From NCBI GenBank assembly GCA_009377395.1, contig WHUB01000012.1, positions 1 to 57,583 of the forward strand: a DNA stretch of 57,583 bases, in the 5' to 3' direction. The notes below the pieces were generated by a model. That model did no database searches. It had not been told where the DNA came from and worked only from the letters and a program-made list of their open reading frames with translations. Both the position numbers and the translations under genes were made by a program. Below are positions 1,215 through 42,634 of this stretch, piece by piece (the first letter of the stretch is position 1; each line of letters opens with the position of its first letter). This DNA comes from Actinophytocola sp. GTDB taxonomy: Bacteria > Actinomycetota > Actinomycetes > Mycobacteriales > Pseudonocardiaceae.

Positions 1215-2408
1215 ATGAACGACCTGGCCAGCTCCGCCCCTGTCCCAGCGACAACTCCGGTGACCAACGAGGAGATCTTCGCAGGCCACGAGGGCGGCAA
1301 GCTGAGCGTAGGCGCGACGCGGCCGATCTCGGACCCGCGTGAGCTGTCCATCGCCTACACGCCGGGTGTCGCCAAGGTCAGCACCGCGATCGCCGAGGAC
1401 GCCTCGCTCGCCGCGCGCTACACCTGGGCGAACCGGCTCGTGGCCGTCGTCAGCGACGGCACCGCCGTGCTCGGGCTCGGCGACATCGGCGCGAGCGCGT
1501 CACTGCCGGTGATGGAGGGCAAGGCGGTCCTGTTCAAGACGTTCGGCGGCCTCGACTCGATCCCGCTGGTGCTCGACACCACCGACGTCGACGAGATCGT
1601 CGAGACGCTGGTGCGGCTGCGGCCGTCGTACGGCGCGGTCAACCTGGAGGACATCGCCGCGCCGCGCTGCTTCGAGCTGGAGGACAAGCTCAAGGACGCG
1701 CTCGACTGCCCGGTGATGCACGACGATCAGCACGGCACCGCGATCGTGGTGCTCGCCGCGCTGCGCGGGGCGAACATGGTGCTCGGCCGCGACATCAGCA
1801 AGCAGCGGGTGGTGATCTCGGGCGCCGGCGCGTCCGGCATCGCCTGCACCAAGATCCTGCAGAATGCCGGCGCAGCCGATGTGACGCTGCTCGACTCCAA
1901 GGGCATCATCCACGTCGGCAGGCCAGGCCTGACGCCCATCAAGCAGGACATGGCGTGGTCGACCAACCGGACCGGGCTCTCCGGCGGTATCGCGGAGGCG
2001 CTCGACGGCGCCGACGTCTTCATCGGGCTCTCCGGGGCCACCATCGACGGGTCGCTGCTCAGCCTGATGGCCGACGAGTCGATCGTGTTCGCGCTGTCCA
2101 ACCCCGAGCCCGAGGTGCACCCCGACATCGCGGCGAACCACGCGAGCGTGGTCGCCACGGGACGCAGCGACTTCCCCAATCAGATCAACAACGTGCTGGC
2201 CTTCCCCGGGGTGTTCCGTGGCGCGCTCGACGCCGGTGCGCGAGCGATCACCGACAACATGAAGCTCGCCGCCGCCGACGCCATCGCGGGCGTCGCGGCC
2301 GACGATCTCGCCGTGGACAAGATCGTGCCGAGCGCGCTCGACCCCCGGGTCGGTCCCGAGGTCGCCGCCGCCGTCGCCAAGGCGGCGACGGCCGACGGCG
2401 TGGCGTAA
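1215..2408 (+). CDS. NAD(P)-dependent malic enzyme
   Basis: About 397 aa. Decarboxylates malate to pyruvate with NAD(P) reduction in the cytosol, linking the TCA cycle to gluconeogenesis and fatty-acid synthesis. Seen in the sequence: the malic N-terminal domain with the conserved block ISDPRELSIAYTPGVAKV, the lysine-containing MEGKAVLFKTFGG, the metal-site motif EDIAAPRCFELE and the HDDQHGTA block. A Rossmann segment VVISGAGASGIAC near mid-protein and the later ALSNPEPE motif follow. It is the short bacterial form without a phosphotransacetylase domain. Three in-frame ATGs exist (1179, 1200, 1215). I chose 1215 because AGGAA lies 6-8 bases upstream and the extra N-terminus adds nothing conserved. 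It converges on kgd across a repeat-filled gap. Confidence 0.9.
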   Translation: MNDLASSAPVPATTPVTNEEIFAGHEGGKLSVGATRPISDPRELSIAYTPGVAKVSTAIAEDASLAARYTWANRLVAVVSDGTAVLGLGDIGASASLPVMEGKAVLFKTFGGLDSIPLVLDTTDVDEIVETLVRLRPSYGAVNLEDIAAPRCFELEDKLKDALDCPVMHDDQHGTAIVVLAALRGANMVLGRDISKQRVVISGAGASGIACTKILQNAGAADVTLLDSKGIIHVGRPGLTPIKQDMAWSTNRTGLSGGIAEALDGADVFIGLSGATIDGSLLSLMADESIVFALSNPEPEVHPDIAANHASVVATGRSDFPNQINNVLAFPGVFRGALDAGARAITDNMKLAAADAIAGVAADDLAVDKIVPSALDPRVGPEVAAAVAKAATADGVA

Positions 2409-2412
2409 CCGC

Positions 2413-2541
2413 GCGAGTCCCCGGTTACGGTGCCGCGAGTCCCCGGGACACGCGGCACCGGAAGTCGGGACTCGCGACGCCACAACGCGGGACTCGCGAC
2501 CCGGGAAGTCGGGACTCGCGACCCGGGAAGTCGGGACTCGC
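2413..2541. repeat. 22-bp-period repeat array filling a convergent intergenic gap (locus 1)
   Basis: The 9-mer GCGAGTCCC occurs at 2413 and 2435. Its complement GGGACTCGC occurs at 2467, 2489, 2511 and 2533, with a one-base variant (GGGACACGC) at 2445. Within each orientation the spacing is exactly 22 bp. The variable 13-bp part takes a few forms, two of which (GACTTCC... and GCGTTGTGG... after the 9-mer) recur at 23.5 kb. The two orientations meet at 2432-2456 in a 12-bp inverted repeat with one mismatch. The array starts 4 bases after the malic enzyme stop and ends exactly at the base before the kgd stop. Confidence 0.85.
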
Positions 2542-5500
2542 TTACTCGAACGCCTTCGCGATGATGGCCTTCTGCTCCACCTCGTGCACCCGGGGGGAGC
2601 CCGCCGACGGCGCCGCCATCGGCCGACGCGAGACCACCTGCAACGGCTTGTCGAACGCCTCCGGGACCCGGCGCGGCAGGTTCAGCCCGAAGAACGGCCA
2701 CGCGCCCTGGTTCTCCGGCTCCTCCTGCACCCAGACGACCTCCGTCGCCGCCGAGTAGCGCGCCATCGCCTCGCGCAGCTTCTTCTTCGGCAGCGGGTAG
2801 TACTGCTCGATCCGCACGATCGCCACGTCGTTCGCGCCGCGCTTGTCCCGCTCGGCGACCAGCTCCCAGTAGAGCTTGCCCGAGGTCAGCAACACCTTGC
2901 GCACCGCACCCGGCTCGGTCTCGGCGTCGTCGATCACGGACAGGAACTTCGAGCCCTCGGTGAAGCCCTCAATATCCGACGTCACCGCCTTGTTGCGCAG
3001 CATCGACTTCGGCGTGAACACGATCAACGGCCGGTCGACGCCGTCGAGCGCGTGCCTGCGCAGCAGGTGGAAGTAGTTCGCCGGTGTCGACGGCACCGCG
3101 ACCGTCATCGAGCCCTCGGCGCACAGCGACAGGAATCGCTCGATGCGGCCCGAGGTGTGGTCGGGGCCCTGCCCTTCGTGGCCGTGCGGCAGCAGCAGCA
3201 CGACGGGGGTGAGCTGCCCCCACTTCGCCTCACCGGAGGAGATGTACTCGTCGATGATGGTCTGCGCGCCGTTGACGAAGTCGCCGAACTGCGCCTCCCA
3301 CAGCACCAGCGCGCGCGGCTGCGCCACCGAGTAGCCGTACTCGAACCCGACGGCGGCGAACTCGGACAGCGCCGAGTTGTAGACCATCACGCGGCCCTGG
3401 TCCTCGGAGAGGTTCTGCAGCGGCGCGTACTCCTTGCCGTTCTCGCGGTCGACGAGCATGAAGTGCCGCTGCGTGAAGGTGCCGCGCTGCGAGTCCTGAC
3501 CGGACAGTCGCACCAGTTTGCCTTCCAGCCCGAGCGAGCCGAACGCGAGCAGCTCGGCGAACGCCCAGTCGATGGTGCCCTCGCGGGACATCTTGTGCCT
3601 GCGTTGCAGCACCGGCTTGACCCTCGGGTGCGGGGTGAAGCCGTCCGGCAGGTTGACGAACGCGTCGCCGATCCGCTGCAGCGTCTCGCTGGTGATCGCG
3701 GTCGGCACCTGGGCGGGGACCTGCTGCGCCTCCTCGACCGACGGGCTCGCCTTGATCGGGTGCTTCTCCAGCTCGCGCACCTCGTTGAAGACGTGTTCGA
3801 GCTGGCTGGAGAAGTCGCGCAGCGCGGTCTCGGCCTCGTCGACCGAGATGTCACCGCGCCCGATCAGCGACTCGGTGTAGGTTTTCCGCACGCTGCGCTT
3901 GCCGTCGATGATGTCGTACATCGCGGGCTGGGTCATCGACGGGTCGTCGCCCTCGTTGTGGCCACGCCGCCGGTAGCAGATCATGTCGATCACGAGGTCC
4001 TTGTTGAACGCCTGCCGGTAGTCGACGGCGAGCTTGGCGACCCAGTACGCCGCCTCCGGGTCGTCGCCGTTGACGTGGAAGATCGGCGCTTCGATGATCT
4101 TGGCGACGTCGGTGGCGTACTGGCTCGACCGGGCGTGCTGCGGCGCGGTGGTGAACCCGACCTGGTTGTTGATGATGACGTGCACGGTGCCGCCGGTGCG
4201 GTAGCCGCGCAGCAGCGCCAGGTTCAGCGTCTCGGCGACGACGCCCTGGCCGGCGAAGGCCGCGTCACCGTGCAGCAGCACCGGCAGCACGGTGAAGCCC
4301 TCCGAGCCCTTGTCCAGCGCGTCCTGCTTGGCCCGCACGATGCCTTCCAGCACCGGGTCGACGGCTTCCAGATGCGACGGGTTCGCCGTCAGCGACACCT
4401 TGGTCTCGCCGTCGCCGAACATGCGGAAGTACTTGCCCTCGGCGCCGAGGTGGTACTTCACGTCGCCGGAGCCGTGCGCCTGGCCCGGGTCGAGGTTGCC
4501 CTCGAACTCCTGGAAGATCTGCGAGATCGGCTTGCCGACGATGTTGGCGAGCACGTTGAGGCGGCCCCGGTGCGGCATGCCGATGACGACCTCGTCCAGC
4601 TCGTACTCGGCCGACTTGTCCAGCACGGTGTCGAGCAGCGGGATCACCGTCTCGCTGCCTTCGAGCGAGAACCGCTTCTGCCCGACGTACTTGGTCTGCA
4701 GGAAGGTCTCGAACGCCTCGGCCGCGTTGAGCTTCGACAGGATGTACTTCTGCTCCGACGTCGGCGGCTTGGAGTGCTTGATCTCGATGCGATCCTGCAG
4801 CCAGCGTCGTTCCTCGGGGTCGATGATGTGGGTGTACTCGACGCCGACGGTGCGGCAGTAGGAGTCGCGCAGCACGCCGAGCACGTCGCGCAGCTTCATC
4901 CGCTGCTGACCCGCGAACCCGCCGACGGCGAACTCGCGGTCGAGGTCCCACAGCGTCAGCCCGTGGGAGAGGATGTCGAGGTCCTCGTGGCGGCGCTGCC
5001 GGTAGTTCAGCGGGTCGGTGTCGGCCATCAGGTGGCCGCGCATCCGGTACGCGTCGATCAGCTCGATGATCCGGGCGGTCTTGTCGACGTCGCCCTCGGG
5101 GATGTCCTCCACCCAGCGCACCGGCTCGTACGGCAGCCGCAGCGAGGTGAAGATGTCGTCGTAGAAGCGGTCCTCGCCGAGCAGCAGCTGGTGGATGCGG
5201 CGCAGGAACTCGCCCGACTCGGCGCCCTGGATGATGCGGTGGTCGTAGGTCGAGGTCAGCGTCATGATCTTGCTGACGCCCATCTTGATCAGCGCCTGCC
5301 CGCTGGTGCCCTGGTATTGCGCCGGGTACTCCATCGCGCCGACGCCGATGATCGCGCCCTGGCCCTGCTGCAGCCGGGGCACCGAGTGGTTGGTACCGAT
5401 GCCGCCGGGGTTGGTCAGCGAGATCGTGGTGCCCGCGAAGTCGTCCGCGGTGAGCTTGTTGGCGCGGGCCTTCTTGATGATCTCCTCGTAGGCCTGCCAG

Positions 5501-6228
5501 AACTGCAGGAACGACATGTCCTCGACGCCTTTGATCGAGGCGACGACGAGGTTGCGCTGGCCGTCCTTGCCCTTGATGTCGATGGCGAGCCCGAGGTTGA
5601 CGTGCTCCGGCGTCACCGCGTGCGGCTTGCCGTCGATCACCTCGTAGTGGCGGTTCATGTTCGGGTATTCCTGCAGCGCCCGCACCATCGCGTAGCCGAT
5701 GAGGTGGGTGAACGAGATCTTGCCGCCGCGGGTCCGCATCAGGTGGTTGTTGATGACGATGCGGTTGTCCGCCATGAGCTTGGCGGGCACCGCGCGCACG
5801 CTGGTCGCGGTCGGCACGGCGAGCGAGGCGTCCATGTTCTTGGCTATGGCCGCCGCGGCGCCGCGCAGTGGCTTGCGGTCCGGCTCCGGCTTCTCGGGCT
5901 TCTTCTCGGCCGCCTGCTGGGTCGGCTTCGGCTGCGGCGCGGGGGCCTCCTGGACGGGCTCTTGCGGTGCGACGGGCGGCTGCGGCTGCCGCACTGCGGG
6001 GTGCGGCGTCGGCCTCGGCGCCGGAGTGCCGCCGTTGCGCTCCTCGGTCCTGGTCGGCAGCGTCCCGGTCGCCTCCGCGCCGTCGCCTGCGCCAGTCGGG
6101 GTGAAGTCGGCGAAGAACTCATGCCAGGCGGCATCGACTGACTGGGGATCGTCGAGGTAGCGCTCGTACATCTCCTCGACGAGCCACTCGTTGGGGCCGA
6201 ATTGTGACGCAGGGCTGCTGCTAGACAC
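2542..6228 (-). CDS. kgd: Multifunctional 2-oxoglutarate decarboxylase/dehydrogenase (E1 with fused E2-like domain)
   Basis: 1228 aa, close to the length of mycobacterial KGD. It decarboxylates 2-oxoglutarate with ThDP and, with dihydrolipoyl transferase and dehydrogenase partners, makes succinyl-CoA. An N-terminal helix ([17 protein letters not shown]) is followed by a Pro/Ala-rich linker at about 40-115. Next comes an acyltransferase-like domain at about 115-350 with the [15 protein letters not shown] active-site motif but no lipoyl domain. The E1 part starts near 370: [29 protein letters not shown] and a [18 protein letters not shown]hDP/Mg region. Ends with the transketolase-like C-terminal domain ([11 protein letters not shown]). 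GTG start at 6228. The family is controlled by FHA protein GarA, which is not in this window. Confidence 0.97.
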
Positions 6229-20324: not shown

Positions 20325-22322
20325 GTGTTCGAGACAGTCCTCGTCGCCAACCGGGGTGAGATCGCGGTCCGGATCATCGGCACATTGCGCCGGATGGGCA
20401 TCACCTCGGTCGGCGTCTACAGCGACGCCGACACCGACGCGCGCCACGTCCGCGAGGCCGACATCGCGGTGCGCATCGGGCCCGCCGCCGCTGCGGAGAG
20501 CTACCTGGCGATCGACGCGATCCTCGACGCCGCCAAGCGCACCGGCGCGCAGGCTGTGCACCCCGGCTACGGCTTCCTGTCCGAGAACGCCGCGTTCGCG
20601 CGGGCCTGCGCCGACGCGGGTCTGGTCTTCATCGGCCCGCCCGCCGAGGCGATCGACGCCATGGGCGACAAGATCAGCGCCAAACGGACCGTGTCCGCCG
20701 CCGGAGTTCCCGTTGTACCCGGTGGTGCGGGCACTGCCGCCGAGCTGACCGCTGCCGCCGGCGACATCGGTTACCCGATCTTGCTCAAGCCGTCCGCGGG
20801 CGGCGGCGGCAAGGGCATGGTCGTGGTGCACGAGCCCGGCGAGCTGGCCGACGCTATCGAGTCGGCGCAGCGGGTCGCGCGCTCGGCGTTCGGCGACGAC
20901 CGGCTGCTGGCCGAGCGGTTCGTCACCAGCCCCCGCCACATCGAGATCCAGGTGCTCGCCGACAGTCACGGCAACGCCATCCACCTCGGTGAGCGCGAGT
21001 GCAGCCTGCAACGACGCCACCAGAAGATCATCGAGGAGGCGCCGTCGCCGCTGCTCGACGCCGACACCCGCGCCCGCATGGGCGCCGCCGCCGTCGACGC
21101 CGCCAAGGCCGTCGACTACGCGGGCGCGGGCACCGTCGAGTTCATCGTCTCCGCCGACCGGCCGGACGAGTTCTTCTTCATGGAGATGAACACCCGGCTG
21201 CAGGTCGAGCACCCCGTCACCGAGCTGGTTACCGGTCTCGACCTGGTGGAACAACAGGTGCGGGTCGCGGCGGGGGAGCGGCTCGGCGTCGCCCAGCACG
21301 ACGTCCGCCTCGACGGGCACGCCATCGAGGCCCGCGTCTACGCCGAGGACCCCGCGGCCGGGTTCCTGCCGACCGGTGGCAGGGTGCTCGCCGTCGCCGA
21401 ACCCGCGGGCGAAGGGGTGCGCGTCGACTCCGGGCTGCAACCGGGCACCGTGGTCGGCTCCGACTACGACCCGATGCTGGCCAAGGTCATCGCGCGCGGT
21501 GACGACCGGGAGCAGGCGCTGCTGCGCCTCGACGAGGCGCTGGCGGGCACGGCGGTGTTCGGCATCGTCACCAACGTTCCCTTCCTGCGGGCGCTGCTGG
21601 CCGACGACGACGTTCGCGCGGGCCGGATGGACACCCAGATGGTGGACCGGCTGGCCGAGCGGCTCGCGGTGGCAAGCCCGGTGCCGGACGAGGTGTTCGC
21701 CGCCGCCGCGCTGGACGAACTGCTCGGCATGCAACCGACGGCTGAGTGGGTGGACCCGTGGGCCGTGCCCACCGGCTGGCGGCTCGGCGGCGCCATCGGC
21801 ACCCTGTTCCGGCTCACCTGCGGCGGCCGCGACGTCACCGTGCGCGTCACCGGCCCCCCGCACGACGCCACCGTGACCGTCGACGACGGCGAACCCATCC
21901 CGGCGCGGGCGGTCCGGCGTGGCGCCGACGTCCTCGAGCTCACCTACGGCGGACGTCGCCGCGGCTACGGCCGGGTGATGGACGAGCGCGCCGACACGCT
22001 GTGGTTGGCCGAGGGCGGGCGCACCTGGGCGGTCGCCGAGCACTCGCTGCTCGACGTCGACGCCACCGCCACGGGCGAGGCGGGCCCGGTGACCAGCCCG
22101 ATGCCGGGCACCGTGCTCGCCGTCAAGGTCGAACTCGACGCCGAGGTCAGCGCCGGACAGCCGCTGCTCGTCGTCGAAGCGATGAAGATGGAACACACGA
22201 TCACCGCGCCGATCGACGGCGTGGTCAGCGAAATCGCCGTCAAGGCGGGCCAAAAGGTCGCACTTGAGGAAACCCTCGCCGTGGTGACTCCACGCGAGAT
22301 CGAAAAGGAGCAACAGCCATGA
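20325..22322 (+). CDS. accA1: Acyl-CoA carboxylase biotin carboxylase / BCCP subunit
   Basis: 665 aa. ATP-dependent carboxylation of biotin plus the biotin carrier. The N-terminal biotin carboxylase starts [31 protein letters not shown], the glycine-rich ATP loop [14 protein letters not shown] (about 150-165), [23 protein letters not shown] ([14 protein letters not shown]) and [14 protein letters not shown] follow. A middle BT-type region precedes the C-terminal biotinyl domain with the biotinylated Lys in [14 protein letters not shown] start with GAGGGAG just upstream. The stop overlaps the fadE19 start as ATGA, so the operon is accD1-accA1-fadE19. Confidence 0.95.
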
Positions 22323-23509
22323 TCGACGTCCGGTTGGACGACACCTACGAGACGCTGCGCAAGACGGTCGAGGACTTCGCGCAGCGCGAGGTCGCACCGG
22401 TGATCGGTGACTTCTACGAGCGCGAGGAGTTCCCCTACGGCATCGTCGCCCAGATGGCGGAGATGGGGCTGTTCGGCCTGCCGTTCCCTGAGAAGTACGA
22501 CGGCATGGGCGGCGACTACTTCGCGCTCTGCCTCGCGCTCGAGGAGCTGGCGCGGGTGGACTCCTCGGTGGCGATCACGCTGGAGGCGGGCGTGTCGCTC
22601 GGTGCGATGCCGATCTACCGCTTCGGCACCGAGGAGCAGAAAGAGCAGTGGCTGCCCGCGATGTGCCGGGGCGAGACGCTGGGCGCCTTCGGCCTGACCG
22701 AGCCCGGCGGCGGCTCCGACGCGGGCGCGACCAAGACCACCGCGAAGATCGACTGCAGTGGGGGTACCCCCGCCAATGAGGGCGTAGCCGGTGGGGGACA
22801 CTGGGTGATCAACGGCAGCAAGTCGTTCATCACCAACTCCGGCACCGACATCACGTCGCTGGTCACCGTCACCGCCGTCACCGGCACCAAGGACAACGGC
22901 GGCAAGGAGATCTCGGCGATCATCGTGCCGTCCGGCACGCCGGGCTTCACGGTGGAGAAGAAGTACTCCAAGGTCGGCTGGAACGCCTCCGACACGCACG
23001 GGCTGTCGTTCGACGACGTCCGCGTGCCGCAGGAAAACGTGGTCGGCCAGCGCGGCCGTGGCTACGCCCAGTTCCTGTCCATTCTGGACGAAGGCAGGAT
23101 CGCGATCGCCGCGCTGTCGGTGGGTTTGGCGCAGGGCTGCGTCGACGAGTGCCTGCGGTACGTGCGCGAGCGGGAGGCGTTCGGCCGCCCGATCGGGGAG
23201 TACCAGGCGATCCAGTTCAAGATCGCCGACATGGAGATGCGCACCCACAACGCACGGCTGGCCTACTACGCGGCGGCATCGAAGATGCTGCGCGGCGAGC
23301 CGTTCAAGAAGGAGGCGGCGATCGCGAAGCTGACGTCGTCCAACGCGGCGATGGACAACGCGCGCGAGGCGACGCAGATCTTCGGCGGCTACGGCTTCAT
23401 GAACGAGTTCCCGGTCGGCCGGTTCTACCGCGACGCCAAGATCCTCGAGGTCGGCGAGGGCACCAGCGAGGTCCAGCGCATGCTCATCGCCCGCGAGCTC
23501 GGCCTCTGA
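22319..23509 (+). CDS. fadE19: Acyl-CoA dehydrogenase (isovaleryl/branched-chain type) carrying an in-frame insertion
   Basis: 396 aa FAD enzyme oxidising an acyl-CoA to the enoyl-CoA. Seen: [32 protein letters not shown], the [13 protein letters not shown] beta domain, [20 protein letters not shown] and the C-terminal [20 protein letters not shown] / [19 protein letters not shown]. Gene order after accA1 and the TetR context suggest branched-chain (leucine-derived) substrates. Residues about 146-160, [15 protein letters not shown], interrupt the loop before [10 protein letters not shown]; relatives have only one or two residues there. The extra codons coincide with a 48-bp palindromic element (22756-22803). 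The reading frame is intact and the active-site regions are complete, so the enzyme may still work. Confidence 0.93.
22756..22803. repeat. 48-bp palindromic element inserted in frame in fadE19
   Basis: Outer arms CAGTG (22756-22760) and CACTG (22799-22803), then inner arms CCCCCGCC (22767-22774) and GGTGGGGG (22790-22797, one G-T pair), around a 15-base loop. The 5' side also reads GGGGGTACCCCC. At 48 bp the element equals 16 codons and encodes a Gly/Ser/Thr-rich peptide in a surface-loop position. It looks like a small mobile palindrome tolerated in a coding sequence, in the manner known for Rickettsia palindromic elements; the latter is an analogy, not homology. Confidence 0.7.
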
Positions 23510-23515
23510 GTTTGC

Positions 23516-23603
23516 GCGAGTCCCGCGTTGTGGTGCCGCGAGTCCCGACTTCCGGCGCGGTGAGTTCCGACTTCCGGGGCTGCGAGTCCCGCGAGCTCGG
23601 CCG
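23516..23603. repeat. 22-bp-period repeat array filling a convergent intergenic gap (locus 2)
   Basis: GCGAGTCCC occurs at 23516, 23538 and 23582, and the variant GTGAGTTCC at 23560, exactly 22 bp apart. The variable halves begin GCGTTGTGG, GACTTCCGG and GACTTCCGG, matching the units of the 2.4-kb array read on its minus strand. The array lies between the stops of fadE19 and the convergent molybdopterin oxidoreductase gene, starting 7 bases after the first. Confidence 0.85.
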
Positions 23604-23605
23604 GC

Positions 23606-24709
23606 TCACCGGACGGTGACGTCGACCCGCTGCGCCATGTTGTTGGCCATGCCCTGCCGGTTCCACGGCTGCTCGGCCGGCTGCACCTCGCCCCGGTCGT
23701 CGGTGGCGCGCACGCACAGCTCGTAGTCGCCCGGCATGCCGGCGTGCCAGGTCAGCCGCCACGACCGCCAGGCACGCGGACCGGCCTGCTCACCCAGCTC
23801 GGCCTCCCGCCAGCTCGCGCCGCCGTCGGTGCTGACCTCGACCCTCGCGACGGTGCCCGTGCCGGTCCACGCGCGCCCGAACAGTGCCACCTCACCGGCG
23901 TCCACGATCCGCCTGCGGGTCTGGAAGTCCGGGAATCCCGGTGGCGCCAGCAACGCCTTGGGCCGGACGCGGGTGACCGGCTCGCCCGGGTCATCGGCGT
24001 CCTGCTTGAGCCGGTACGCCGTCGCGTTCTGGAAGCCGGTGAACGGTTCGGCCTGCACCGTGATCTCGCGCAGCCACTTCACGTGCGCCATGCCGTACCA
24101 GCCCGGCGCGATCAGCCGAACCGGCGCGCCGTGCTGCGGCGGCAGCGGCATTCCGTTCATCTCGTAGGCCAGCAGCACGTCGTCGGCGGTTGCGTCGGCG
24201 ACCGACAGTGATCGCGCGTAGTCCTGCTCGACGCCGCGTTCGGTGCCGTGGTCCTGACCGGTGAACACGACGTCGACCGCGTCCGGCGCGATGCCCGCCT
24301 CCCGCAGCAACGGCGCCAGCGGCGTGCCGGTCCACTGCGCCGTGCCGACCGCCTCGTCCAGCCACGGCTGGCTGATCGGACGGGGCAGGAACCGGGCACG
24401 TCCGTTGCCCGCGCATTCCAGCGTCACCGTGTGGGTCACCTGCGGCCGCTCCCGCAGCCGCGCGAGGTCCAGCTCGACCGGGCGTTCCACCGCGCCATTG
24501 ATCGTCAGCCGCCAGGACGCCGGGTCCACAAACGGGATGTCGTAGTGCACCAGCAGGTAGTGCAGGCCCGGCGGGGTGATGTCGTAGCGCAGCGCCTCCA
24601 GCGGCATGCCGTGGTTGCGGGCCGCGAGCTTGAGCTCGTCGGCCGAGATGCCTTCGGCCGGTGCGGCCACCCTGGCCAGCTCGCCGGGTCGCGCGGAGAC
24701 CGAGGTCAT
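23606..24709 (-). CDS. Sulfite oxidase-family molybdopterin oxidoreductase
   Basis: 367 aa. The Mo-cofactor domain has the ligand Cys in TVTLECAGNGRARF (about residue 99). Cofactor-binding stretches are FTGQDHGTERGVEQDYARSL, YEMNGMPLPPQHGAPVRLI and the PGWYGMAHVKWL block. A C-terminal dimerisation (Ig-like) domain carries GRAWTGTGTVARVEVSTDGG. No heme domain and no signal peptide, so it is a cytosolic SorA/SUOX-like or YedY-like enzyme with an unknown acceptor. The substrate may be sulfite or an S/N-oxide. Start ATG 24709 has GGGAGGAG 7 bases upstream. The divergent neighbour is a VOC protein gene. Confidence 0.87.
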   Translation of the reverse strand: MTSVSARPGELARVAAPAEGISADELKLAARNHGMPLEALRYDITPPGLHYLLVHYDIPFVDPASWRLTINGAVERPVELDLARLRERPQVTHTVTLECAGNGRARFLPRPISQPWLDEAVGTAQWTGTPLAPLLREAGIAPDAVDVVFTGQDHGTERGVEQDYARSLSVADATADDVLLAYEMNGMPLPPQHGAPVRLIAPGWYGMAHVKWLREITVQAEPFTGFQNATAYRLKQDADDPGEPVTRVRPKALLAPPGFPDFQTRRRIVDAGEVALFGRAWTGTGTVARVEVSTDGGASWREAELGEQAGPRAWRSWRLTWHAGMPGDYELCVRATDDRGEVQPAEQPWNRQGMANNMAQRVDVTVR

Positions 24710-41997: not shown

Positions 41998-42133
41998 TGC
42001 CCACCTCGCCTTTCACCGGAGCTGATCGCAGCGTAGTACTCACCGGTAGCGAGAAAAAGACGAGCAGCGCTCGGGTTCGTGGTGTCGCGAATGCCGAACA
42101 CGGCGGCACGAGCGCAGGACACGACGCAGGGGG

Positions 42134-42634
42134 TTACTCCACCCGGCGGAAGCTGAGGGTCTCGCCTTCGACGCCGCGGAGCCAGAGATCCTGCGCGGCC
42201 GCGGCCATCTCGTCCAGCCCCTCGACGATGCTGGCGAACACATTGCCCGGCACCCAGCCCGCGTCGCCGTTGATCAGCAGGTTGTTCCGACCGTAGAAGA
42301 TCGCCAGGTCGGTCGCGCCCGCCGCGCTGTGCGCCTCGCTGCCCTCGTCGTAGCCGTACGCCGGATTGCCGATCTCCCACGGCTCGAACGCGAAGTACAC
42401 GACGTCGCCGGGAATCGGCGTCACCGTGGGGTTCTCCCGGCCCGGCTCCGGGTCGGCGAACGGCCGCACCAGCGTGTACACCTCGTTGCGGGCGTACTTC
42501 GCGTGGTAGGCCTGATCGCCCTGTGGCAGCGCCCGCCACACCGCCTCGCAGGTGCGGGGCGCCTGCTCGTCGAGCAGCACCGCCCGGCACGAGACGCCCC
42601 GTTTGTCCAGGCTGATCGTGATGTAACGGCTCAC
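42134..42634 (-). CDS. DUF3830 family protein (cyclophilin-like fold)
   Basis: 166 aa. MSRYITISLDKRGVSCRAVLLDEQAPRTCEAVW begins the beta-barrel; ARNEVYTLVRPF, TPIPGDVVYFAFEP and IFYGRNNLL are the recognisable DUF3830 blocks. The family is uncharacterised and usually found beside amidases, racemase-like proteins and aminotransferases in catabolic clusters, as here. Its GTG start overlaps the aminotransferase stop (GTGA), so it is co-translated with it. It could bind a pathway intermediate; no catalytic residues can be named. Confidence 0.8.
   Translation of the reverse strand: MSRYITISLDKRGVSCRAVLLDEQAPRTCEAVWRALPQGDQAYHAKYARNEVYTLVRPFADPEPGRENPTVTPIPGDVVYFAFEPWEIGNPAYGYDEGSEAHSAAGATDLAIFYGRNNLLINGDAGWVPGNVFASIVEGLDEMAAAAQDLWLRGVEGETLSFRRVE

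What the first reader, a model, noticed from the sequence alone, without database searches (positions are those of the whole stretch)
2413..2541. 22-bp phased repeat family restricted to convergent intergenic gaps (locus 1; sister array at 23516)
Seven copies of one 9-mer (two forward, five reversed, one with a mismatch) lie at exactly 22-bp steps within each orientation. They fill the whole 133-bp gap from 4 bases past one stop to the base before the other. The second array, 21 kb away, has the same period and the same two kinds of 13-bp filler and also lies between convergent genes. A 22-bp step is about two helix turns, so a protein could bind along one face. Possible roles: insulator or terminator between converging transcripts, nucleoid-protein site, or a mobile REP-like element. 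I know of no description of it.
Basis: partly seen in the sequence, partly recalled or inferred. Interest (0 to 1): 0.78.

Follow-up and report, generated by a model that had tools for sequence, protein, structure and literature searches.

The report
Two-turn DNA arrays past stop codons
In actinobacteria of one family, runs of a nine-letter DNA word repeated at a fixed step of 21 or 22 letters (about two helix turns) sit just past the ends of many genes, most often, gap for gap, between genes that face each other, where they likely serve as one-way docking arrays for a still unknown protein that would stop or insulate transcription.

Summary
In detail: GCGAGTCCC lies at exact 22-bp steps, filling one convergent gap (2413-2541), with a sister array at 23516-23590. 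Genome-wide, 73 of 73 close same-strand pairs are 22 bp apart (reversed control 0). "Restricted to convergent gaps" is too strong: of 37 arrays here, 18 are convergent, 17 tandem, 2 divergent. Over seven genomes (partly array-selected) 84 of 268 convergent, 79 of 906 tandem and 14 of 434 divergent gaps carry one. Arms begin a median of 5-14 nt past a stop codon in five genomes (21.5 in a sixth) and mostly point away from the gene. It is a Pseudonocardiaceae-wide class with several unit families, stepping 21 or 22 bp. An unconstrained middle core differs at 1.7% of sites, neighbouring spacers at 33.5%. At 8 of 10 orthologous gaps a sister species keeps an array, in 7 with units of another family. 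Facing arms are not co-adapted for pairing, no target-site duplication was found, and the REP transposase family is absent from several array-rich genomes. Best reading: a polar, phased protein-binding array that insulates or terminates transcription at gene 3' ends (inferred; no factor found). Main rival: a selfish REP-like repeat.

The parts
2413..2541 (.). Array 1: two + cores facing five - cores (one with a mismatch), 22-bp steps, filling the convergent gap 2409-2541
2413..2443 (+). Array 1, + arm (2 cores), 5' end 4 bases past the stop of the malic-enzyme-like gene
2445..2541 (-). Array 1, - arm (5 cores; innermost is GCGTGTCCC), abutting the stop of the kgd-like gene
2429..2459 (.). Central near-perfect inverted repeat where the two arms meet (long RNA or cruciform hairpin possible)
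23516..23590 (+). Array 2: four + cores at 22-bp steps (third degenerate), in convergent gap 23510-23605
42096..42125 (-). Two units of the sibling 21-bp family (GTCGTGTCC / GCCGTGTTC), 8 nt past the stop of the gene 42134-42634(-), in a tandem gap
1260..2408 (+). Flanking gene, malic enzyme domains (PF00390, PF03949)
2542..6171 (-). Flanking gene, 2-oxoglutarate dehydrogenase E1/KGD type (PF00676, PF00198, PF16870)
22319..23509 (+). Flanking gene, acyl-CoA dehydrogenase
23606..24709 (-). Flanking gene, molybdopterin oxidoreductase (PF00174, PF03404)

Best explanation
The arrays are a dispersed class of 3'-end elements: a conserved core repeated at a fixed step of 21 or 22 bp (about two helix turns), placed a few bases past stop codons and mostly pointing away from the gene, and they likely work as one-way docking arrays for an unidentified sequence-specific DNA-binding protein that would block or release RNA polymerase leaving the gene. 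Shown here: position, orientation bias, fixed phase, conservation of the core over the spacer, decay of cores away from the 5' end of each arm, and retention of an array at orthologous gaps while the unit family changes. Inferred: that a protein binds, that several copies bind together on one face of the DNA, and that the outcome is termination or insulation of converging transcripts. In a convergent gap each gene would have its own arm, which gives the inward-facing ++-- layout.
For: Fixed phase: only lags 21 and 22 stand out in gaps of G298 (1419 and 260 exact 8-mer repeats, both strands counted, against 10-29 at lags 19, 20, 23 and 24; coding sequence has a codon-periodic lag-21 level of 877 per Mb against 9461 in gaps), and likewise in G310. 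With the step left free from 18 to 26, it is 22 in 73 of 73 pairs in the own genome, 83 of 84 in G294 and 97 of the first 100 listed (of 126) in A. taiwanensis, the other three being 21. Core conservation, genome-wide with the middle core unconstrained: exact in 18 of 20 (own), 31 of 34 (G294) and 70 of 87 (A. taiwanensis, G318), that is 1.7, 1.0 and 2.2% divergence per site (counted by eye); the two spacers differ at 33.5% of sites in the own genome, and at 16.4% (A. taiwanensis) and 9.3% (Herbihabitans) in the pattern-selected loci. Anchoring: sense arms' 5' core a median of 5-14 nt past a stop in five genomes, 7 in G350 (4 arms) but 21.5 in G310. Orientation: convergent gaps with arms of one orientation inward 44, outward 9; tandem gaps with one orientation sense 42, antisense 15; a stricter detector on 1.0 Mb of G298 gave 15 sense, 1 antisense. 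Location: convergent 14 of 52, tandem 5 of 109, divergent 0 of 66 gaps in a blindly chosen 400 kb of the array-rich genome G310. Site retention with unit turnover: 8 of 10 orthologous gaps in G298 carry an array, judged by eye, 7 of them with units of another family, against 27 of 392 convergent plus tandem gaps there by detector. Arms are not co-adapted for pairing: native spacers match less than swapped ones, 7.2 against 8.1 of 13, 19 arrays.
Against: No binding protein was identified. Orientation is not strict: P. hydrocarbonoxydans tandem arms are 7 sense, 8 antisense; pooled tandem arms are 64 to 37; and with the looser detector G298 is 17 to 7. Convergent enrichment could simply reflect tolerance, since convergent gaps hold no promoter. 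The expected replacement of hairpin terminators was seen only in the first 100 nt (p=0.045 in G298, 0.0105 in G310; not in the own genome, p=0.41) and vanished at 160 nt with dinucleotide shuffles (no genome significant, pooled p=0.42; 10 of 44 against 154 of 421, Fisher p=0.07). Distribution is patchy: many family members have no GCGAGTC array, and G369, with 312 pattern hits, showed none in the 200 kb that I took. The own third-family arrays show weak core conservation (5 cases, 17.8% core against 36.7% spacer divergence).
Confidence: 0.4

Rival explanations
1. A selfish, REP-like dispersed repeat spread by an unknown enzyme, tolerated mainly where it breaks neither genes nor promoters; no host function is needed.
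For: High copy number and different dominant unit families in sister species; patchy distribution; several inward arrays share the same centre, GCGAGTTCYSGGGACTCGC in 6 of 20, which suggests dispersal of a ready-made element; avoidance of divergent gaps is what promoter avoidance would give, and inward arms plus promoter avoidance could by themselves yield part of the sense bias.
Against: REP transposase family PF01797 absent in array-rich G298, G299, G294, G188, G319 and G320 (5 of 18 searched genomes have it; one of these five, A. taiwanensis G318, only a partial match). No target-site duplication (20 arrays, mean match 0.8, shuffled 0.96). Arms start within a few nt of stop codons. At 8 of 10 orthologous gaps an array is kept although units changed in 7. 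The core is far more conserved than the spacer.
Confidence: 0.35
2. The facing arms form long RNA hairpins that act as bidirectional intrinsic terminators or RNase III sites.
For: The 20 inward arrays of the own genome fold at -38 to -117 kcal/mol on the + strand, many as long stems (no shuffled control there).
Against: Native arms pair no better than arms swapped between arrays (-60.3 against -61.8 kcal/mol, 19 arrays, p=0.90; the named sets there, 2 and 5 arrays, are too small). Many arrays have a single orientation or arms of different unit families. The strict T-tract terminator scan found none in array-bearing gaps of own loci (0 of 19 convergent, 0 of 18 tandem) and 1 of 27 in G298, but it is rare without arrays too (5 of 114 and 6 of 365).
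Confidence: 0.12
3. Binding sites of a nucleoid-organising protein whose role is chromosome architecture; 3' ends are merely the free space.
For: Two-turn phasing and multi-copy tandem sites.
Against: Stop-codon anchoring and orientation bias are not predicted.
Confidence: 0.1

Closest known systems
REP/BIME elements with RAYT transposases (PMC2817692: start of abstract and two passages seen; the rest recalled)
   Same: Short, high-copy, extragenic units, often in groups between genes.
   Different: The core is not palindromic, units run in the same orientation within an arm instead of alternating, the step is fixed at 21 or 22 bp, and there is no RAYT family hit in several array-rich genomes.
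Sal-box elements bound by TTF-I at mammalian rRNA genes (PMC11358750: passages seen)
   Same: Short motif (18 bp in mouse) past a 3' end, bound in an orientation-dependent way; polar termination. That factor and sites co-evolve is the title of a 1995 paper seen only in that paper's reference list.
   Different: Eukaryotic Pol I and one gene type; here dozens of protein-coding genes in bacteria and no known factor. A functional analogy only.
DNA-bound roadblocks to RNA polymerase, e.g. LacI, Tus, dCas9 (review PMC10310618: passages seen)
   Same: A protein on DNA stops elongation; for dCas9 and yeast Rap1 the block depends on orientation.
   Different: No genome-wide phased arrays at 3' ends in the passages seen.
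Intrinsic (hairpin) terminators
   Same: Place: right after stop codons.
   Different: No T-tract found in own array gaps; pairing of arms is not maintained.

Membership tests
REP/BIME with RAYT | Extragenic, high copy | tested here: met
REP/BIME with RAYT | Palindromic unit, alternating orientation within a group | tested here: not met
   Core is not self-complementary; arms are same-strand runs at 22-bp steps
REP/BIME with RAYT | Cognate Y1 transposase (PF01797) in the genome | tested here: not met
   Absent in G298, G299, G294, G188, G319 (P. hydrocarbonoxydans) and G320 (Herbihabitans); one gene each in G000 and G300, partial match in G318
MITE / insertion element | Target-site duplication | tested here: not met
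   20 inward arrays, mean match 0.8 against 0.96 for shuffled pairs
MITE / insertion element | Clean empty sites | tested here: inconclusive
   2 of 10 orthologous gaps lack an array; one holds a plain hairpin, the other a 1-kb insertion
Intrinsic terminator | G+C hairpin maintained by base pairing | tested here: not met
   Native arms pair no better than swapped arms, 19 arrays
Intrinsic terminator | T-tract after the hairpin | tested here: not met
   0 of 19 convergent and 0 of 18 tandem array gaps in own loci, 1 of 27 in G298; the scan is strict and finds few terminators anywhere
Rho utilisation (rut) site | C over G on the sense strand | tested here: inconclusive
   C/G 1.04 in arrays and 1.04 without in own loci; 1.34 against 1.02 in G298
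Sal-box/TTF-I-like polar terminator array | Tandem polar sites past 3' ends in fixed orientation | tested here: met
   bias strong but not strict, and absent among tandem arms of P. hydrocarbonoxydans (7 to 8)
Sal-box/TTF-I-like polar terminator array | Sequence-specific protein that stops the polymerase | not testable with these tools
   No factor identified; needs binding and 3'-end data
Known Rfam RNA | Match to a curated family | tested here: not met
   No match in the window at the gathering threshold

The most novel reading that the evidence does not exclude
Pseudonocardiaceae use a protein-based, polar transcription terminator: a fast-evolving DNA-binding factor reads tandem two-turn sites placed after stop codons. 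Factor and sites co-evolve, so the core and step of the arrays (22-bp GCGAGTCCC, 21-bp GCGAGTCGC, 21-bp GYCGTGTCC) are swapped between sister species while the sites stay put.
Probability: 0.3. Interest if true: 0.88.

Novelty: new variant of a known kind. Interest (0 to 1): 0.7.

Why it matters
Dispersed repeats between genes are usually treated as clutter or hairpins. This class has a strict phase, a polarity and an anchor point, and keeps its places while its sequence changes, so it makes a clear, testable prediction about how high-GC actinobacteria end transcripts between converging genes. It could also offer natural parts for insulating genes in antibiotic-producing genera.

Tried and rejected
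Restriction to convergent gaps: rejected. RAYT-driven REP: rejected as a membership. TSD-bearing element: no support. Arm pairing under selection: no support; native spacers even match less than swapped ones. Terminator replacement: apparent in the first 100 nt, not in a wider test. Perfect-hairpin counts: no significant difference. Rut-like C richness: none in own loci, some in G298. Arms as ends of gene-carrying elements: the genes between separated arms looked ordinary (judged by eye, no family search). Phage carriage: no exact two-core match in viral contigs. Plasmids: two Gemmatirosa records matched, but these are 7-bp simple repeats. Literature: no paper on such arrays in the listings (one search was on TTF-I); passages read in three papers.

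Weak points of my own analysis: genes were called by a home-made codon-usage finder, so a few gap types may be wrong; arms inside a called gene were dropped (3 own, 4 G298, 1 P. hydrocarbonoxydans). Own-genome loci were chosen because they hold arrays. Of the G298 stretches, the blocks of 600, 200 and 200 kb are contiguous but were chosen knowing that they held some arrays, and 200 kb more was picked for arrays. G310, G369 and G350 stretches were picked blind, after one search had shown those genomes to be array-rich. P. hydrocarbonoxydans, A. taiwanensis and Herbihabitans loci come from an exact three-core 22-bp pattern, 80 of 101 stretches returned; so their core-conservation figures (61 of 67, 41 of 42, 24 of 24) and spacing figures (283 of 285 with own) are biased upward, and I replaced them with the genome-wide counts, which for P. 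hydrocarbonoxydans list too few rows to use (9 of 55, all exact; none of 122). One search's pattern covers steps of 20 and 21 only. One search oriented about half the loci wrongly and was replaced, where the stop marked for several outgroups, and by 8-14 nt for G299 and G300, is not the kgd stop; I read those rows by eye. G294 and G320 may be the same species.

Full report
What is there. The window is the first 57,583 bases of an 82-kb contig of a 4.69-Mb, 622-contig genome. By the named relatives that carry the same pattern (Pseudonocardia, Amycolatopsis, Herbihabitans, Lentzea, Actinophytocola) its family is Pseudonocardiaceae. This is an inference from those names, as the genome itself is unnamed; four single hits in that list lie elsewhere (an Anaerolineae MAG, Micromonospora, Aldersonia, an unclassified actinomycete MAG). 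Array 1 lies between a malic-enzyme-like gene and a kgd-type 2-oxoglutarate dehydrogenase gene; array 2 between an acyl-CoA dehydrogenase and a molybdopterin oxidoreductase gene. A third, shorter array of a sibling family lies at 42096-42125, 8 nt past a stop in a tandem gap.

More than chance. The pattern core-N13-core occurs 73 times in the genome, and its reversed control never. The single 9-mer occurs 187 times against 18. In 37 multi-core clusters the gap is convergent in 18, tandem in 17 and divergent in 2, so the title's 'restricted' is wrong, but the enrichment is real. In a blindly chosen 400 kb of the array-rich relative G310, 14 of 52 convergent, 5 of 109 tandem and 0 of 66 divergent gaps carry an array; in 200 kb of G350 it is 3 of 19, 1 of 66 and 0 of 35, and in 200 kb of G369 none of 118. 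Pooled over seven genomes with a looser detector the numbers are 84 of 268, 79 of 906 and 14 of 434 (the own, part of the G298 and all named loci were selected for arrays).

A class, not one repeat. Core-free tests show the same thing. Autocorrelation of convergent gaps in G298, a sister species, peaks at 21. Exact 8-mers recur in its gaps at lag 21 (1419) and 22 (260), and 10-29 times at lags 19, 20, 23 and 24; coding sequence has a codon-periodic level at lag 21 of 877 per Mb against 9461 in gaps. In the own loci lag 22 gives 801 and lag 21 gives 162. Three unit families coexist in the genus: 22-bp GCGAGTCCC, 21-bp GCGAGTCGC-ACC and 21-bp GYCGTGTCC. The 21-bp GCGAGTCRC pair pattern is absent from the window's genome (0) but present in its three sisters (31, 21 and 37). 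Across 160 family genomes the 20/21-bp GCGAGTC pattern matched in 46, 17 of them with ten or more matches (my count; two of the 17, G325 and G255, have control counts of 29 and 7). Across the order, the 21/22-bp pattern matched in 17 of 54 family genomes and in 13 of 244 genomes outside it, there one or two hits each, in the range of the reversed control (my count). G310 has a 21-bp GCGAGTCCCGC family and a 22-bp GCGTGTCGGC family side by side.

Anatomy. The step is rigid: with steps of 18 to 26 allowed genome-wide, 73 of 73 pairs are 22 in the own genome and 83 of 84 in G294; of the first 100 listed of 126 in A. taiwanensis 97 are 22 and three are 21. Cores are fixed and spacers vary: with the two outer cores fixed and the middle free, genome-wide, the middle core was exact in 18 of 20 (own), 31 of 34 (G294) and 70 of 87 (A. 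taiwanensis), 1.0-2.2% divergence per site (counted by eye; in A. taiwanensis most exceptions are GCGTGTCCC). The two spacers around it differ at 33.5% of sites in the own genome. It is weaker for the own third-family arrays (5 cases, core 17.8% against spacer 36.7%). In the own genome neighbouring spacers are no more alike than spacers from different loci (8.50 against 8.28 of 13, 18 neighbour pairs); in A. taiwanensis and P. hydrocarbonoxydans neighbours are more alike, as after recent tandem duplication (11.0 against 9.4, 10.3 against 8.8). Cores decay from the 5' end of an arm to its 3' end (first exact in 53 of 57 own arms, last in 40 of 57), and the 5' border is sharp, with a conserved C before it. 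The 5' core of sense arms lies a median of 5-14 nt past a stop in five genomes, 21.5 in G310. In one search an arm in a convergent gap counts as 'after stop' by construction, so orientation was retested apart: arms of one orientation are inward 44, outward 9 in convergent gaps, and sense 42, antisense 15 in tandem gaps. P. hydrocarbonoxydans is the exception (7 sense, 8 antisense of all tandem arms).

Evolution in place. Of 37 own arrays, 10 have both flanks together in the 1.2 Mb of G298 that I fetched. At 8 of these 10 gaps G298 also has an array (judged by eye), in 7 with units of another family, sometimes several families in one arm; one gap has a plain hairpin and one a 1-kb insertion. 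Two of the ten lie in stretches picked because they held arrays; without them it is 6 of 8. The background in G298 is 27 of 392 convergent plus tandem gaps by the detector. At the kgd 3' end, G298 carries a hairpin followed by a 22-bp array, G300 a hairpin followed by a 21-bp array, G299 a hairpin only, and the window's genome an array and no separate hairpin; by eye 19 of 26 more distant rows show a hairpin.

What it is not. The REP transposase family PF01797 is in 5 of 18 genomes and missing from array-rich ones. No target-site duplication was found. Inward arrays can fold into long hairpins, but native arms pair no better than swapped arms. A test of whether arrays replace hairpin terminators was positive in the first 100 nt of G298 and G310, not in the own genome, and negative over 160 nt with better shuffles in all five sets; I count it as inconclusive. 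No Rfam family matches the window, and no exact match was found in viral contigs.

Mechanism. Conserved core, free spacer sequence and rigid two-turn step are what a tandem array of sites for one protein on one face of DNA would look like. The anchor past stop codons, the direction away from the gene, and the preference for convergent gaps point to transcript ends. I therefore commit to a polar protein-bound terminator or insulator, at 0.4. It would work like the Sal-box elements of TTF-I (PMC11358750, passages) and like orientation-dependent roadblocks (PMC10310618, passages). It is not claimed to be a member of either. The main rival, a selfish repeat tolerated at 3' ends, is not excluded (0.35).

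Noticed in passing
   Followed up: partly
L049 and L054 (own contigs C144, C266): Arrays that seem to have only + cores of the 22-bp family are faced by a - arm of the third family, so arms of one gap can belong to different families.
   Followed up: partly
G369 C1:100001-300000 (L287-L296): No array in 200 kb although the genome has 312 pattern hits; the hits must lie elsewhere.
   Followed up: no
G000 C444:1439-1777 (L204): One Y1 transposase (PF01797) match without internal stops in the own genome, with another in G300 but none in G298 and G299.
   Followed up: no
L307, L308 (Gemmatirosa kalamazoonensis plasmids): 7-bp simple repeats GACTCGG in + and then - orientation; they match the array by composition only.
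   Followed up: yes
L112 2536-3010, L108 6028-6430, L127 5081-5540 (P. hydrocarbonoxydans): Inward-facing arms at the two edges of gaps, 300-400 bp apart, with unrelated-looking sequence between.
   Followed up: partly
L192 (G316), downstream of a gene after kgd: A 22-bp inward array of yet another unit, GCGAGTCGTACRTTCCCG, in another genus.
   Followed up: partly
G318 (A. taiwanensis), listing: The commonest non-exact middle core is GCGTGTCCC, the same variant as the innermost unit of array 1 in the window.
   Followed up: no
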